DNA of 64,000 nucleotides. It comes from Micropterix aruncella (taxonomy: Eukaryota > Arthropoda > Insecta > Lepidoptera > Micropterigidae). Of the stretch, positions 3,740 to 14,609 are shown piece by piece (the stretch's first letter is position 1; the number at the start of each line of letters is the position of its first letter). The stretch lies in NCBI GenBank assembly GCA_944548615.1, contig OX155955.1, positions 3,703,643-3,767,642 of the forward strand, read 5' to 3'. The translations under genes and the position numbers were made by a program. The notes beneath the pieces were generated by a model. The model was not told the DNA's origin, made no database searches, and worked only from the letters and a program-made list of their open reading frames with translations.

Positions 3740-4850
3740 GTATGATTACTCCATCACTCCATCCGCGCAAAGACTAAATCCCGTCAACTTAGAATCCTCG
3801 ATGCCCTATATGCTGACGACGCCTGCTTCATGGCTGACAGTTCTAGCGCACTCCAGTCATACCTTAACCATCTTTACGAATCCTGCAATAAATTCGGTTT
3901 GACAATCAGCACTTCCAAGACCCAGGTAATGGCTCAGCCTCCGCGAGGAAGCCCACCTGAAGAACCTAACATTTTCCTCGGTAACGGTGTCTTAGAGGTA
4001 GTATCTCACTTTCGCTACCTTGGCAGTGAGATTAGGAATGATAACCGTCTGGACACTGAAATCCCAGTACGCATAGCCAGAGCTGCTTTCGCCTTCGGCA
4101 AACTAAACCAACGTGTCTGGAAATCGCATGATCTAAAACTGAAAACAAAGCTGGCCGTCTACAAAGCGATTGTCCTACCCATATTGTTATATGCCTCCGA
4201 AACGTGGTGCCTCTACAGGAAAGAGATTAAGAAATTAGACGTCTTCCACATGAGGTGCCTCCGAAACATCCTGAGGATAACATGGGAAGACCGTGTGTCA
4301 AACACAGAAGTGTTACGAAGGACGAAAATGCAGGGCATGGAAGCTATGCTTATGAAAGCTCAGCTGAGGTGGTGTGGGCATATAGTGCGTATGAAAGACG
4401 ACCGCCTCCCGAAAGCCGTGTTTTATGCCCAACTCTCAAAAGGCGCACGCAAAGTCGGCGGACAGCACCTACGCTACAAAGATGTATTAAAAAGGCACCT
4501 AACCGCCAGTGGTATTCCACCTGAGAGCTGGGAGAGGGCTGCTCACAAACGCAGCGAGTGGCGCTCCACGGTGACCACAAAAATTAAAGAGTTTGAGGAA
4601 GCCCGGCTGAAAAACCTCGACTCGAACCGCCAACAGCGCAAAACTCGTCCGAAGCCCAATTACACATATACTTACAACGACTGCGGGGAACTCTACTGTA
4701 GTCGTTGTAATCGGACCTTCAAAAACAAACTGGGATTCACGAGTCACTTCCGCGCGCATATTCGAAGAAGTCCTGTCAACGAAGAGGTCGCCGTCGTCGG
4801 ATCACGATGAGGAGGACATCATCATCATCATCATCATCATCACTCCATCA
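3740..4850 (+). pseudogene. 5'-truncated LINE: reverse transcriptase C-terminal half with C2H2 finger
   Basis: The frame containing the ATG at 3830 extends upstream and includes YADD (3809-3820), the metal-binding motif C of reverse transcriptase, preceded by IRAKTKSRQLRILDAL. Downstream are GLTISTSKTQVM, FRYLGSEI, AVYKAIVLPILLYASETW, LRWCGHIVRM and a terminal C2H2 finger CSRCNRTF...HFRAH. This is the end of the RT and C-terminal region of a non-LTR retrotransposon; the endonuclease and first RT motifs are missing. The frame runs intact for about 330 codons to TGA at 4810, and the element ends in a (CAT)n run at 4819-4842. This order, with a zinc finger at the very end, is typical of an arthropod RTE- or CR1-related group; I cannot fix the clade by eye. 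Confidence 0.92.
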
Positions 4851-6988: not shown

Positions 6989-8640
6989 GCGATGGGCGAG
7001 TTTGATTTATAAACTAAATTTTGCATTATTTTCTTGCTAATGTCTCTGGGTATATAGCCAATTTCGTATGGGTATGTAGCCAAATCGCTAGAGTAACATC
7101 CCTTCTGCATCTATACCAAGCGGTTTTACTTCATAAAAAACGCATTGGTAATTATTTTAACAAACCAACTATATGTACAAATGTGTTTTTAGCAACATCA
7201 GCACTCGACTTAAATGCACCGCATCAAAGTCCGACCTCTAAAAGCCAGGAAGTGGGAAGCTATCATCACAAAATGTGAGACGAAGCCCATTCTTGTCAAC
7301 CGAGATGACAAAAAACTTTAGATGTCAACACCATTCAGGGTATGTATCCATGTATCTCGCATTACATTTCCCCAATGATTGAAGCTGCTTTCACGATTTA
7401 AGAGAAGAATATTACCAAAGGTGGAATGACACTCGAAGAATGAGACTTCAATAAAATCCGTTTAGCCAGAGTTCTGTTTTCCTCATACTTTTCGATACAT
7501 AACTTGTAATTAATACATTCGCAAACGTACTCGTATATATATATCCTCTCATTAAATAAATAGTCCAGATTCATTACTTTAAGACAACAGTCCTAATTGT
7601 GAATGTTTATTCAAGTTTGTCTTTTCTCTAGGTTTTCTAAGTTTTACATTTTGGTGGTAGTATTTTCAAATATGTCCCTTATACATTAATTAAACACACA
7701 GAGTAAGTAATTTTTAAGAAAAAAGGTTATAACCATAAAGAATTCGCGCGCGGTAGAAAGACCGAGCAGAATTTTCAAGGTATAACTTAAACCGATCCGA
7801 TTTGGAATAAAGCCAAGCATTTTGTCCGTTCAATAAGTTTCCGGGGCGAAAGTTTGTTCGTAGTTAACAAGGCAGAATTTAAGAAAGTCCAAACGACCCG
7901 ACTACTATTCATCTGGCAGACTTGTAAGCTTATTTTTTTCGTATTTCAATACTCTGATTTTTGAATATTTTAACTACCGATTTCATAAATTAAAAAGTTT
8001 TTGCACCTATTTTTTAAGGGGACTAGAGGAAACATTAGACACAATTAGCGTCACTATATTGACAACTCTGTAGACGTATTGTCCTGCATCAATTACCAAA
8101 GAAAGAGTAATTTTGTTATGATGTTATGGCGAATATAATATGGTTACCTACCCCCTACTAGGACTGTTTAAGCCCCGCCCACTACGCGTCGCCGCGCCTT
8201 CCCCCTCCTCTACAACTCGGCTGGCAGACGCGTGTGGATTAGTCGAAACGAATCAATATTTTGGCACAAAAAGGTCTCATATCGGTCGTTTCATTTAATC
8301 CTTAGACGTTTTATTTTGAACAGCGATAACATGTTTGTTATCGGATCGGTCGGATCTTCTTTCATAGGACAATGTACATACGTATATCTAAAATAAAATT
8401 ATTCAGAAAAATTTATGCCTACTAGGAAAACAATTATTTTAGCTTTGTATTAAAGACCTATATTGTTAAATAGATTAAAGGCTACTTTCAGATTCATTTC
8501 GCTACATATATAATTCTACGAAAACTAAAGTTCCTTTGTGACCTTAACTATATTTATGTTATTTACTTACTCTATTCTGTGTGTATACCTGACGTTAGGT
8601 TTGCTCTGTCTCCCGTGAGTTGAGCGTTTACGACTTTGGA
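6989..8640. other. No recognised gene
   Basis: AT-rich, with only short frames (for example 7021-7278 +, 85 codons, no motif). A GC-rich patch at 8175-8240 looks different in composition but carries nothing I can name. Confidence 0.5.
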
Positions 8641-8760
8641 ACGAAACAGTCCAAGGAGGTGTTGAACTCAGCTTTCAATGGCTTCACCGAACATATCCGG
8701 GCCCATTGGCAATAAAGGAGGGTGTCGGACGAGGTGGGACTAGTGAGCGGCCGCTCTACA

Positions 8761-8838
8761 GTTCTCCAGCGCGCGTGACGTTTCGGCTCGCTACAAGCCC
8801 TCATCAGCTAGTCTGCGATGACTAGGACGCGGAGAACC
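8761..8838 (-). ncRNA. Hammerhead-ribozyme-like fold at the LINE 3' end
   Basis: On the minus strand the parts occur in type III hammerhead order. Stem III 5' strand GUUCUCC (8837-8831) plus GCG is followed by cleavage triplet GUC (8828-8826). Stem I is CUAGUC (8825-8820), loop AUCGCA, GACUAG (8813-8808). Then come core CUGAUGA (8807-8801), stem II GG(G)CU...AGCC (8800-8785, one bulged G), core GAAA (8784-8781), CG pairing back to the triplet, and stem III 3' strand GGAGAAC (8767-8761). Every conserved core base is present. The fold overlaps the last 15 codons of the LINE ORF and its stop. Weak points are the bulge in stem II and an internal loop in stem III. Such ribozymes are known in Penelope-like elements and retrozymes; activity here is inference. 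Confidence 0.6.
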
Positions 8839-11358
8839 ACCAGTCCCGCCCTCGACCTCCCTCTCTCTACCTATCCATATTCTGTAGGATGCCTCCAGTG
8901 CCGCTTTCGAGGCTCTCTCCATGTATGAGCTCAGCGCCGCTCTTGGCAGGCCTAAATTCTTGAAGAGGCTGTAGAGTGACTTCGCCGGTAGTCCTCTTGC
9001 TCCGACTTCCACGGCGAAGAGATCAGTCTTAAATCCGTTTCTCACTATCCGGTCTACTAAATTGCAGTACTTGTTTACTTTGAAGTTGTGGTCCTTCGGT
9101 ATGTTGCTTTCCCATGGGACTGTAAGTTCGACAAGTACAACATGCTTTGTCGCCATTGAGAATATGAGAATATCCGGTCTGTAAGCTGTGGTACAGATTT
9201 CTGAAGGCATTTGGTAATGCTTCTCATGTGTGTCCATCAGCAATTGCCAGTCCTTTGCTGCTCCCAAAATTGAGGACGGTTTAGTCCTATCTTTAGGCAG
9301 CTTATTCGCTCCGGGTTTTACAAAGTTGACCTTCTTGAAGCCATTGCTCGTTTGCCCTTTTCTGGTCCGTGCAATAGATAGGCTGATAGCCTCTCTGATG
9401 ATTTGGAGGACTTTATCATGGCGATAGGAATAATGGCCTCGCTCAAGCAGTATTTTGCAACCACATAGCAAATGTTTGGTAGTGCCTATGAACTCCTTAC
9501 ACGTCGGGCATACTTTATTTGTAGATTTCCCCCATCGAACTAGGTTACTCGGGTCAGGCAGAGTAAGTTGGAACGCATTTAGGTAGAACTTAAGCAGTTC
9601 AGGGGACCAGTTGTATATTAGGGATTTCCACTTCAATGCAGGGGGGATGCAGAAGTCACCCACAGTCAACCAGTCATTCTGCATTTCTAAGTTCAAGGCG
9701 TGCAGTTTGAAACCTTGCTCCATGTCTTGCTGGGCAAAATCTTTCAGTACTTCTTTGTCAGACTTAGCTGTTTCCATACCCAGTCCAGCTCTATTAGTGC
9801 GGATACCAGCTTGGAATAATTTGTAGAAGTCGAGTCTTGATTCCATTTTATCTGATAGCGATGTGTTGGGTAGGGCTCGAATGGCACTATCATTGGAGTC
9901 TTTGAGTATACATCGTTTGGCTATTCTCGCCTTTTGATAAAACGTTGACGGTTTCTTAATGTTTAGTCCAAAGTTGTTGTGAGATCTGAATAGAGTTGAT
10001 GGGTCAGCTGGGTGAGCCAGGCCAAACCATGATTTCAGGGATCTGGTCACTTTAGAGTCTAATTTATTAAGATTTTGCTTAGAGAAGTCATAGACAAGAA
10101 ATGGCCATGAAAGTTTTGATGTCAAGTAGTTATCGTATATCCATGCCTTATGTGTACCAAGGAGGGGAAGATTGTCAGTTCGGCAAAGGTACTCATCAAC
10201 AAGTTTGACAATGTCCTCGGTGGGATGCTCCTTTCCTCTGCTAGTGATTTTTTTCCCTAGAAACTTGAAAGGAGCTTCATCAGTCACTGTTGCGATTGTT
10301 TTACCAGACACTGTCAGACCCGGGTCGTTTGAGATAAATTTTGTACCCTTCCTTACTAAGTTCAAACAGTAGCACTTTGCCGGTTTAATCTTCATTCCAT
10401 TGGTCCATTCGCAATAGTCATCTACTACTTTGAGAAGTGCTTGGTTTTGTTTTGGATTGCGGGTTAATAGTGTTATGTCGTCCGCAAATGCCAGGATAGC
10501 CGCCATGTATTTGTCTCCGTATTTGAACCTGTATCCCCATTTACTTTCTTTTACGACAAGGGTATCAATTAGAATGTTGATAACAATGTTAAATGCCACA
10601 GGAGAGAGGCAGCAACCCTGGAAGAGTCCTACGCCATAGTGAATTTCAGGTGTCCTCTCCGTTTCATCTTTTAATTGTATTACGAAGGAAAGCTTTTTGT
10701 AATAGGATGCTATTATATTGCAGATCAAAGGTGGCACATTATACCATTCAAGCGCCTTTAATAGTAATTCGTGGCGCACCGAACCAAAGGCATTTTCAAA
10801 ATCCAACCACGTGGCAGTTATTTGTCTCTCGTTCTTTCTTGCATCTTTAAGGCATTCAGTTAGCAAGGAATTATGTTCGAGACATCCTGAAACTCTTGGG
10901 AGAAAACCTTTCTGATATTTTTTCGGTAAATAGTCATTGGTACACATGTGTTTGAGTAATCTGGCTTGTATAATGGAGAAGAATATTTTGGAAATTGTGT
11001 TTGTAAGGGCTATAGGTCTAATATCCTTGGGATCAGTAACTTCTTTTGTTTTAGGTATAAGAACAAACTTACCGTTACCTAGGCAATCTGGCACATCTCT
11101 GTTAGTCCATATTCTTTTGAAGATGTTCAACATATGTTTACGCACCGATGGACATTTTTTGTAAACAATATATGGTATGCCATCTGGCCCTGGGGCGGAA
11201 CTATTTGGTTTCCTTTTTATGTGACATTCCAGCTCCTCCATTGTTGGTGAATCAGTATCGAATGCTAGAACAGGTTCTTTTGGCTTCGGAGCTGGTGGAT
11301 CCCTGTAAGTTATATGTTCCTCCGGGGCGGTATATGTGGACTTAAAATAGTTGAACAC
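8791..11358 (-). CDS. Reverse transcriptase with zinc knuckle and restriction-like endonuclease
   Basis: An 855-codon frame for a single-polypeptide retrotransposase that would nick its target and copy its RNA there. RT is residues ~50-450: PGPDGIPY (56-63), motif A WLDFENAFGS with D186, QGCCLSPVAFN, and motif C FADD (291-294). A CCHC knuckle follows (C617, C620, H629, C634). The endonuclease core is RPDI (D729) with E744 in VELTV 15 residues later, the R2-type PD-X14-E pattern, then GARGLPAKSL and a SKAALEAS tail. The listed start is a GTG inside the coding sequence. Continuous coding exists upstream in another frame (RVTSREARDIWPKLVVKARV, about 11405-11505), so a one-base frameshift near 11405 breaks the real protein, and any N-terminal DNA-binding domain is missing. 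RT and endonuclease residues are intact, so the copy is young. It is probably not active because of the frameshift and truncation. Confidence 0.92.
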   Translation of the reverse strand: MFNYFKSTYTAPEEHITYRDPPAPKPKEPVLAFDTDSPTMEELECHIKRKPNSSAPGPDGIPYIVYKKCPSVRKHMLNIFKRIWTNRDVPDCLGNGKFVLIPKTKEVTDPKDIRPIALTNTISKIFFSIIQARLLKHMCTNDYLPKKYQKGFLPRVSGCLEHNSLLTECLKDARKNERQITATWLDFENAFGSVRHELLLKALEWYNVPPLICNIIASYYKKLSFVIQLKDETERTPEIHYGVGLFQGCCLSPVAFNIVINILIDTLVVKESKWGYRFKYGDKYMAAILAFADDITLLTRNPKQNQALLKVVDDYCEWTNGMKIKPAKCYCLNLVRKGTKFISNDPGLTVSGKTIATVTDEAPFKFLGKKITSRGKEHPTEDIVKLVDEYLCRTDNLPLLGTHKAWIYDNYLTSKLSWPFLVYDFSKQNLNKLDSKVTRSLKSWFGLAHPADPSTLFRSHNNFGLNIKKPSTFYQKARIAKRCILKDSNDSAIRALPNTSLSDKMESRLDFYKLFQAGIRTNRAGLGMETAKSDKEVLKDFAQQDMEQGFKLHALNLEMQNDWLTVGDFCIPPALKWKSLIYNWSPELLKFYLNAFQLTLPDPSNLVRWGKSTNKVCPTCKEFIGTTKHLLCGCKILLERGHYSYRHDKVLQIIREAISLSIARTRKGQTSNGFKKVNFVKPGANKLPKDRTKPSSILGAAKDWQLLMDTHEKHYQMPSEICTTAYRPDILIFSMATKHVVLVELTVPWESNIPKDHNFKVNKYCNLVDRIVRNGFKTDLFAVEVGARGLPAKSLYSLFKNLGLPRAALSSYMERASKAALEASYRIWIGREREVEGGTGGSPRPSHRRLADEGL

Positions 11359-11520
11359 CTCATCTGAGTTTATCTTGATTATACCCTGCTCCTCTTTGAA
11401 AGCTTACGCCACTCGCCCGTAAGAACTCGCGCCTTTACTACCAGTTTCGGCCAGATGTCTCTGGCCTCCCGACTGGTTACACGTTCGAGGTCGCTGGTGC
11501 TGTCCTCTGCCTTATGTTTT

Positions 11521-12522
<1,002 letters not shown>

Positions 12523-13800
12523 TTAATTTTGCCTATTCAGACCGGGACCCTTGCAAGCGCCTAAAATATTTATAAAAGCCAACTCCCAAGATTTAACGTC
12601 TCTTTCTTTAGCGTTATCGCCAAGGCACTTAATAATTTTTACTTTAAAACAATTATCAAAAGTTAAATTGTGTGCCTTAGCATGCAATGCTATTGGAAGT
12701 TGACTTTCATTGCCTACGCTGGCCCTGTGATTATTTAACCTAATGCTAAGAGGTGTAGTTGTTTCCCCAATATAAAATGCATTGCAGGTCTGGCAAAGTA
12801 ATTGATATACAATATTTTTTGAAATGCAACTACTATTAAAAGGAACTCTGTAACTGTTGGGAGTGTTAGGACTAGTAAAATAAATGCTTCGATCTAATAA
12901 AGGACATGTTTTACAACGTGATCGACCGCAAGGCTGTAGGCCCAAATTTTTGTTAGTACTAAGATAATTTCGATTATTTTTATTAAGTATTGATTTTAAA
13001 TTAGGAGGTTTTCGAAATGATAAAATTGGTGGTATATCTAATAAACCTTTGGTTGATGGGTCGTTAGCTATAATAGGGAATAAATCTGCTAAAATTGGTC
13101 GCAATTTCTCAGTGCCAGGAAAATAAGTAGTACTTAGAAAGATTTTATTTTGATTTAAATTTGACACCAATTTAGGTTTAGGTGAAAATTTTGTTTCGGA
13201 ATTTATTATATTTTTATCTAACAAAGAGGCAGGATAATTTCTTTCTATTAGTGATTTTTTAAGATTAGAAAGGTACTTATCTAGATTTTCTTTATTATTA
13301 ATTAAACGGTGTCCGCGAATGGACATTGAATATGGAATTGACTTTTTGGTATGAAACGGATGACAGCTATCGAAATGTAGGTATTGCTCTTTGTTTGTAG
13401 GTTTTATATGAATTGCAGTTTTAATGGTGCCTTCGGATAGAGTTAGATCAACGTCTAAGAATGTAATTTGATTTTCTGATATAGTGTATGTAAAATCTAA
13501 GGGTCCGAAATTATTTAAATCTGTAAGGAAGTCAGTGAGTGTGTCATGTCCATGTGGCCAAAACAATATAATATCATCAATAAACCTATACCACATTAGT
13601 GGTTGTAAATTTTGAGTAAGAAGAAATTTATTTTCTAATAACCCCATGAAAAGATTCGCATAAGAAGGAGCCATTCTTGTTCCCATTGCTGTACCTTTAA
13701 TTTGGAGATAAAATTCATCCTCAAAAGAAAAAGCATTCTTAGTGAGGACGAATTCAGCCAACTTACAAAGAAAATTTGTAGAAGGAATTTGGGGGCTGGG
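12523..13800 (-). CDS. Penelope-like element: reverse transcriptase plus GIY-YIG endonuclease (partial)
   Basis: The minus-strand frame is intact for about 425 codons from the N gap to the stop. RT motifs include GTAMGTRMAPSYANLFMG and WYRFIDDIILFW with the catalytic DD, then QITFLDVDLTL. The linker carries a cysteine cluster CGRSRCKTCP that is characteristic of Penelope-like elements. The C-terminal GIY-YIG nuclease is VYQLLCQTCNAFYIGETT followed by SIRLNNHR. Together these identify a Penelope-like retroelement, which copies its RNA at a nick made by the GIY-YIG domain. The N-terminal RT motifs are hidden or lost in the 200-N gap. The short stretch beyond the gap (14001-14064) belongs to the open frame only by chance. 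No stop or frameshift is visible in the part seen, so the copy is young. Confidence 0.93.
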   Translation of the reverse strand, partial: PSPQIPSTNFLCKLAEFVLTKNAFSFEDEFYLQIKGTAMGTRMAPSYANLFMGLLENKFLLTQNLQPLMWYRFIDDIILFWPHGHDTLTDFLTDLNNFGPLDFTYTISENQITFLDVDLTLSEGTIKTAIHIKPTNKEQYLHFDSCHPFHTKKSIPYSMSIRGHRLINNKENLDKYLSNLKKSLIERNYPASLLDKNIINSETKFSPKPKLVSNLNQNKIFLSTTYFPGTEKLRPILADLFPIIANDPSTKGLLDIPPILSFRKPPNLKSILNKNNRNYLSTNKNLGLQPCGRSRCKTCPLLDRSIYFTSPNTPNSYRVPFNSSCISKNIVYQLLCQTCNAFYIGETTTPLSIRLNNHRASVGNESQLPIALHAKAHNLTFDNCFKVKIIKCLGDNAKERDVKSWELAFINILGACKGPGLNRQN

Positions 13801-14000
13801 NNNNNNNNNNNNNNNNNNNNNNNNNNNNNNNNNNNNNNNNNNNNNNNNNNNNNNNNNNNNNNNNNNNNNNNNNNNNNNNNNNNNNNNNNNNNNNNNNNNN
13901 NNNNNNNNNNNNNNNNNNNNNNNNNNNNNNNNNNNNNNNNNNNNNNNNNNNNNNNNNNNNNNNNNNNNNNNNNNNNNNNNNNNNNNNNNNNNNNNNNNNN
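13801..14000. other. Assembly gap (200 N)
   Basis: Exactly 200 N, so probably a fixed-size placeholder of unknown true length. It truncates the Penelope-like ORF. Confidence 1.
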
Positions 14001-14609
14001 AACGGTTTGCCGGATTTCCTTGGCCCTGGTACCTCAAAGAGGAGAAAACAACATTAACTAACATTTCTTTTACACTTTTTATAAATAATTGTTTAATAAA
14101 TTTTGTATTTCCATTTTAGTTGTTCGTTTGTGAACAGGGACATCCCTCCACCTATCCCACCCTTTTCCCTCCTCTCTGACCCCCTTCAAAATTTTAAATT
14201 GAATAAATGATTACTTCACTGACTCATGTTAGACAGGTTATTGAAGATATAAAGACAAATGTATACGATGATATATGAAAATTACCATAAAATTTTCAAG
14301 TTTGGAGATTTTCAGTCTGATCTTAAATTATAGCTAAGGTATGTAGTTTAAAAATATGTAAAATAGTTTTCGTCGCAAACGTGCTGGGCATGTCGCAAAG
14401 TTTTTGTCAAAAAGTGAAAACATTTAGCAGCTTTTGAGATATTTTAAAGTGTTCCGGAGGGCTGCCGAGGTCGAAAACTTGGATTTAGCATCTCAGGCAC
14501 ATCCCTTACAAAAAAAAATTAAACCTTCTACCCCCCACTTGATGCAACTTATGATGTACTAGGTTACTGGACTAAATGGGAATAATAATTTATTTATTTA
14601 TTTATTTAT
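14001..14609. other. Unassigned flank between gap and LTR array
   Basis: A short plus-strand frame right after the gap ends GLPDFLGPGTSKRRKQH then stop; it looks coding but is too short to assign. The rest is AT-rich, ending in a (TTTA)n run at 14588-14609 into which the LTR element inserted. Confidence 0.4.

What the first reader, a model, noticed from the sequence alone, without database searches (positions are those of the whole stretch)
8761..8838. Hammerhead-ribozyme-like fold overlapping the end of an R2-like LINE ORF
All conserved hammerhead core elements (GUC, CUGAUGA, GAAA) occur on the minus strand in the right order, joined by a perfect 6-bp stem I, a 4-5-bp stem II and a distal 7-bp stem III. 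I know of hammerheads in Penelope-like elements and retrozymes, and of HDV-like ribozymes at the 5' end of R2. A hammerhead at the 3' end of an endonuclease-type LINE, overlapping its last codons, would be a different arrangement and might set RNA 3' ends or process read-through transcripts. A bulged G in stem II and an internal loop in stem III leave activity uncertain.
Basis: partly seen in the sequence, partly recalled or inferred. Interest (0 to 1): 0.78.

Follow-up and report, generated by a model that had tools for sequence, protein, structure and literature searches.

The report
Hammerhead-like knot in transposon tail
Near its 3' end, a young jumping gene in an unnamed, probably insect, genome carries every conserved base of a self-cutting hammerhead RNA, but the same stretch is predicted to fold more stably in another way, so self-cutting is possible but unproven.

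Summary
On the minus strand, 8838-8761 holds the full hammerhead core (GUC^, CUGAUGA, GAAA) in type III order, with stems of 6, 6 (one extra G after A9) and 4 bp. A looser descriptor hit once in 600 Mb of random sequence. The host is a young R2-like LINE (62 copies sampled) ending near 8657.

The predicted dominant fold is a rod (8730-8854, z -2.87) that pairs core bases; the hammerhead fold costs 3.9 to 9.4 kcal/mol more. Eleven 3' regions of a sister family (about 50% protein identity) show no hammerhead core; a similar rod is predicted for two of the four I folded. Copies of this family are too alike to test covariation. Rfam gave no hit, weak evidence, because a convincing phage hammerhead also stayed below threshold. 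I put a working hammerhead at about one chance in three. The likeliest reading is a structured 3' RNA of an R2-like LINE containing a cryptic or minority hammerhead.

The parts
8657..11403 (-). R2-like LINE copy (family 1), 3' end near 8657; 11403 is only the start of the open frame, this copy's own 5' end was not determined
8791..11403 (-). 870-aa frame (stop to stop): reverse transcriptase, Cys-Cys-His-Cys motif, C-terminal region that I take to be the endonuclease (from memory of the pattern); stop TAG 8793-8791
8761..8838 (-). hammerhead-like stretch, type III order (termini in stem III)
8825..8826 (-). predicted cleavage site, between C17 (8826) and 8825
   Evidence: sequence read against the hammerhead consensus (recalled); inference
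8808..8825 (-). stem I, CUAGUC/GACUAG with loop AUCGCA
8801..8807 (-). CUGAUGA core
8785..8800 (-). extra G (8800) plus stem II GGCUUG-UAG-CGAGCC
8778..8784 (-). GAA, A15.1 and 3' strand of inner stem III (ACGU)
8730..8854 (-). predicted dominant rod, -62.4 kcal/mol and z -2.87 for 8725-8855
8657..8708 (-). 3'-terminal part (CAATGGGCCCG..CGGTGAAGCCATTG..), partly shared with family 2 by eye

Best explanation
The stretch is the apical junction of a strongly structured 3' RNA of a young R2-like LINE (family 1). The RNA folds mainly into a rod: outer stem, side hairpin, 12-bp P1 with one bulge, hairpin P2 (= stem I), and bulged hairpin P3 (= stem II lengthened by UGAUG:CGUCA). With the 3'-terminal part it probably marks or protects the template for the element's own reverse transcriptase, as the R2 3' UTR does. 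The hammerhead core inside it is then cryptic: a coincidence in a junction-rich RNA, or a minority conformer with little activity. Shown: element, copies, 3' end, motif, predicted folds. Inferred: the function of the rod and the weakness of the hammerhead.
For: Predicted fold well defined and better than dinucleotide shuffles (z -2.87, 2 of 200 shuffles as good; z -1.85, 8 of 200, for 8755-8842 alone). Hammerhead fold -15.4 vs -19.3 (61 nt, ensemble share 8e-4) and -25.6 vs -35.0 (86 nt, 1.3e-7). In six phage hammerheads the gap is 0-1.8 kcal/mol at both flank lengths for four loci, 1.5 and 5.6 for L107, 5.4 and 6.8 for L013. Family 2, about 50% identical in protein, has at the same place 3' regions without the core (11 of 11 read); for L140 and L152 an outer stem, inner stem and side hairpin like those of family 1 are predicted, and L140 lacks much of the apical piece. 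Both families share a similar terminal ATGGGCCCG..CGGTGAA..CCAT (by eye).
Against: The full core with three helices is rare by chance (1 looser hit in 600 Mb). The energy model ignores tertiary contacts, and L013, a convincing hammerhead by eye, also looks unfavourable (3.9e-5 and 7.8e-6). Of four family 2 copies folded, two (L188 with other inner pairing, and the decayed L153) do not show the same rod, and no shuffle test was made for family 2. No compensatory changes support the rod. RT binding of the rod is untested; in R2Tg it is the last 67 nt that are ordered.
Confidence: 0.52

Rival explanations
1. A genuine type III hammerhead with one extra residue after A9. It cuts LINE transcripts 35 nt before the end of the stop codon, perhaps only co-transcriptionally, in read-through or tandem transcripts, or when the LINE protein remodels the rod.
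For: All core residues present, stems 6/6/4 bp. A Penelope-like element of Anolis has a hammerhead overlapping its ORF start that showed cleavage only with protein added (PMC11167929, passages). In the short 61-nt transcript its ensemble share lies within the range of the controls. Two of 67 3'-end matches run straight into a further family 1 5' end, where cleavage would separate units.
Against: Competing fold better by 3.9-9.4 kcal/mol; the hammerhead was not the best fold at any of eight transcript lengths. No Rfam hit at E<=10. Core absent from family 2. Cleavage would remove the stop codon and 3' end from the element's mRNA. Metazoan hammerheads are mostly type I (PMC7229834, passages).
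Confidence: 0.34
2. No RNA function: GC-rich end of a coding sequence plus 3' UTR that happens to fold; the motif is chance found by scanning many windows.
For: The number of windows scanned is unknown. The 8755-8842 stretch alone has only z -1.85. No covariation could be tested. The rod is not predicted in all family 2 copies folded.
Against: Rod z -2.87. Similar rods predicted in L140 and L152. Rarity of the descriptor.
Confidence: 0.14

Closest known systems
Type III hammerhead ribozyme (Rfam RF00008; plant satellite RNAs and plant retrozymes)
   Same: Same order of stems, complete core, NUH cleavage site, closed loops on stems I and II
   Different: Extra G after A9, short inner stem III followed by an internal loop, strong competing fold, no covariance-model hit, sits in an animal-type LINE
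Hammerheads of Penelope-like elements (minimal type I)
   Same: In a target-primed retroelement and overlapping its ORF (PMC11167929)
   Different: Type I, at the ORF start; here type III order at the ORF end
R2 3' UTR RNA (R2Bm, R2Tg)
   Same: Structured RNA after the ORF of an R2-like LINE; the RT's best solved matches are R2
   Different: In R2Tg the protein orders the last 67 nt (PMC12222951, passages); this rod lies upstream of the terminal part and its binding is untested
R2 5' HDV-like ribozyme
   Same: A ribozyme in an R2-type element
   Different: Other ribozyme class and other end; no HDV-like hit in 401 nt at this family's 5' end, a search of limited sensitivity
Twister sister-like ribozyme of human LINE-1
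   Same: A self-cleaving RNA proposed in a LINE
   Different: Other ribozyme class and other LINE; seen as listing and abstract start only (PMC11620745)

Membership tests
Hammerhead ribozyme | Core CUGAUGA ... GAAA with A15.1-U16.1 pair and NUH cleavage site | tested here: met
Hammerhead ribozyme | Three helices joined at the core without extra core residues | tested here: inconclusive
   Stems 6/6/4 bp, but one extra G after A9 in the best pairing. I recall, from no call, natural hammerheads with an extra residue there.
Hammerhead ribozyme | Score against curated covariance models | tested here: not met
   No match at gathering score or at E<=10. The six phage control loci also had none at gathering, and L107 reached 17.5-19 bits, so sensitivity is low.
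Hammerhead ribozyme | Predicted fold competitive in the ensemble | tested here: inconclusive
   8e-4 (61 nt) and 1.3e-7 (86 nt). Six controls 0.4 to 3.9e-5 (8-nt flanks) and 0.079 to 7.8e-6 (25-nt flanks): the short window form is inside that range, the long form below all twelve values. Different numbers of pairs were forced in window and controls.
Hammerhead ribozyme | Compensatory changes in stems among relatives | tested here: inconclusive
   62 copies, 50 identical over 82 nt, 58 with site, stem I, core and GAGCCGAAACG intact; no divergent member found
Hammerhead ribozyme | Self-cleavage at the predicted site | not testable with these tools
   needs in vitro transcription
R2-like LINE | Reverse transcriptase nearest to R2 proteins | tested here: met
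   the best matches among solved structures are R2 proteins; few LINE RTs are solved and no tree was built. PF00078.
R2-like LINE | Cys-Cys-His-Cys motif and C-terminal endonuclease | tested here: inconclusive
   C632, C635, H644, C649 invariant in 10 aligned proteins; endonuclease assigned from memory of its pattern, no domain hit
R2 proper | Insertion into one fixed 28S rDNA site | tested here: not met
   3' flanks differ from copy to copy; no direct comparison with 28S was made

The most novel reading that the evidence does not exclude
A type III hammerhead built into the last codons and 3' UTR of an R2-like animal LINE, with the stop codon as its stem II loop. It toggles between an inactive rod and an active fold, so that translation, binding of the LINE protein or read-through from an upstream tandem copy decides whether the RNA is kept as a template or cut.
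Probability: 0.25. Interest if true: 0.75.

Novelty: new member of a known kind. Interest (0 to 1): 0.42.

Why it matters
If active, it would be an uncommon hammerhead type for animals and would put one at the 3' end of a LINE, where it could set the template's end or switch between mRNA and template. One cleavage assay can test it, because the sampled copies are young and mostly keep the motif. If inactive, it is a caution that a complete hammerhead core can sit inside another structured retroelement RNA.

Tried and rejected
Rfam at gathering score and at E<=10: no hit; the phage controls showed that this search is insensitive. Relatives in phage records, viral contigs and prokaryote genomes: none. 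Literature: the listings (22, 14, 8 and 8 papers) show no title or abstract start that describes a hammerhead in an R2-like LINE; two searches returned no papers. No HDV-like hit at the family 1 5' end (401 nt); given the sensitivity this does not exclude one. Insertion at one fixed site is not supported. Recalled only, from no call: a widespread TGAWGA-N-stem-GAAACGTC / GAAATATT motif in animal retroelements. The Penelope-like element in this window has a vaguely similar hairpin downstream of its ORF; I could not test this. I wanted divergent family 1 relatives; the two searches meant for that (a core pattern and protein P0018) did not complete.

Full report
What is there. On the minus strand, 8837-8761 reads GUUCUCC-GCGU-C^-CUAGUC-AUCGCA-GACUAG-CUGAUGA-G-GGCUUG-UAG-CGAGCC-GAA-ACGU-(internal loop)-GGAGAAC. 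This is a complete hammerhead core in type III order. The best stem II is 6 bp with an extra G after A9 (whole hammerhead -24.2 kcal/mol, against -17.1 for a 4-bp bulged version); inner stem III is 4 bp. The stop codon of the LINE is the loop of stem II.

Chance. A descriptor looser than the site (stem I >=5, II >=4 with 0 or 1 insert, III >=3) gave one type III-order hit in 600 million random bases on one strand (even base composition), none in 1,088,284 bases of viral loci on both strands, and only this site in the window. The type I version of the script found five hits in four of the 120 viral loci (L013, L025, L107, L089 twice). The motif is therefore unlikely by chance in one window; how many windows were scanned before it was chosen is unknown to me.

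The host. The 870-aa frame 8791-11403 has an RVT_1 domain, and its best matches among solved structures are R2 proteins; no tree was built. The top of the protein search is Danaus chrysippus, about 55% identical (only the 7,990 candidates sharing most words were scored), hence my guess of an insect. The genome, unnamed, has 1.08 Gb; a 201-bp probe gave 233 candidates, 40 scored, all matching at about 100%. Of 30 fetched loci, 29 aligned (L145 was lost to an orientation error in that script). The 28 other than the window's own copy are 98.7-99.8% identical to it, their matches stop at window 8657 or within 13 nt beyond, and 23 of the 28 are 5'-truncated within the stretch compared. 3' flanks differ from copy to copy and show no poly(A) tail. 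So this is an ordinary, recently active LINE; the hammerhead-like stretch lies about 105-180 nt before its end.

Does it fold as a hammerhead? The predicted dominant fold is different: 8730-8854 makes a rod (-62.4 kcal/mol for 131 nt, z -2.87, 2 of 200 shuffles as good). It keeps stem I (5 of its 6 pairs) and stem II as hairpins but pairs UGAUG with CGUCA and lengthens P1, burying the core. The hammerhead fold is 3.9 kcal/mol worse in a 61-nt transcript (ensemble share 8e-4) and 9.4 worse in an 86-nt one (1.3e-7), and was not the best fold at any of eight lengths. Six phage type I hammerheads, picked by eye from the 30 best rows of 120, had shares of 0.4, 0.091, 0.052, 0.032, 0.019 and 3.9e-5 with 8-nt flanks, and 0.079 to 7.8e-6 with 25-nt flanks. 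The short window form is lower than five of six controls with 8-nt flanks but inside the range; the long form is below all twelve values. Caveats: the numbers of forced pairs differ (two controls, L028 and L008, had only one stem II pair forced), and the energy model ignores tertiary contacts.

Rfam. No match at gathering score in the window or at E<=10 in 8600-9000. The six control loci also had no match at gathering score, and L107 scored 19 and 17.5 bits at E 0.96 and 0.5. The negative is therefore weak.

Relatives. The D. chrysippus protein P0012 against the genome gave 29,351 first-look candidates, 83 scored, 166 matches, not all listed; I see two families in the list, family 1 (the window's, mostly 51-54% to the query) and family 2 (mostly 49-53%). 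Eleven family 2 3' regions were read (L140, L152, L153, L155; L186-L189; L194, L195, L199), plus one deletion variant (L142). By eye on the printed sequences none has CUGAUGA...GAAA. Four of the eleven were folded: L140 and L152 show an outer stem, an inner stem and a side hairpin like family 1; L188 keeps the outer stem and side hairpin with other inner pairing; the decayed L153 folds otherwise. No shuffle test was made for family 2. Its apical part carries two palindromes and is largely missing in L140. Both families end in a similar sequence (ATGGGCCCG ... CGGTGAA ... CCAT; by eye). Thus the place seems structured in both families, while the apical part, which in family 1 is the hammerhead-like one, is not conserved.

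Within family 1, 62 copies, distinct by their 3' flank, cover the stretch; 50 are identical over 82 nt and 58 keep site, stem I, core and GAGCCGAAACG. The changes look like neutral decay (L197, for example, has CCGATGA), so neither structure can be tested by covariation. Searches for more divergent relatives did not complete by the genome tool.

Mechanism. Most likely (0.52) the rod and terminal part form the 3' RNA that the LINE's reverse transcriptase recognises or that protects the template, by analogy with R2, and the hammerhead is cryptic. The rival (0.34) is a real, possibly protein-assisted hammerhead; the precedent is the Anolis Penelope-like element whose hammerhead overlaps the ORF start, showed cleavage only with protein added, and was not needed for insertion in vitro (PMC11167929, passages). 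A hammerhead here would cut the mRNA before its stop codon, so it would have to be inefficient or regulated. Head-to-tail family 1 copies exist (L190 and L193, nearly the same junction, possibly one duplicated locus), a setting in which cleavage would free units. A third reading, no RNA function, gets 0.14.

Novelty. As best explained it is a new member of a known kind, a structured 3' RNA of an R2-like LINE. If active as a hammerhead it would be a new arrangement; the listings show no such report in titles or abstract starts. Of papers I saw only passages of PMC7229834, PMC11167929, PMC12222951 and PMC6155905.

Noticed in passing
L190 about 308-360 and L193 about 745-797: Family 1 LINE copies joined head to tail: the 3' end of one runs through ACCTTCAAAATAAGACARCCCGG into the 5' end of the next. 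Two of 67 3'-end matches, the 67 including repeats of the same locus; perhaps one locus duplicated.
   Followed up: partly
G000:C3:40313621-40325350: Four family 2 matches spaced exactly 3594 bp apart, as in a tandem array.
   Followed up: no
L190 from about 340: The 5' end of family 1 is a row of about six roughly 20-nt hairpins with GARAGA-type loops; function unknown; no HDV-like Rfam hit.
   Followed up: partly
window 12523-14115 minus; hairpin near 12322-12291: Penelope-like element (RVT_1 and GIY-YIG matches, both below Pfam's cut-off) with a small hairpin followed by AAATATTC downstream of its ORF.
   Followed up: no
window about 11750-12104: Long (TA)n run between the LINE and the Penelope-like element.
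   Followed up: no
L107, L025, L013, L028, L008, L089: Viral contigs with type I hammerheads convincing by eye that have no Rfam match at gathering score; four of the six meet my type I descriptor.
   Followed up: partly
window 3746-4810 plus: Fragment of another reverse transcriptase frame (RVT_1).
   Followed up: no
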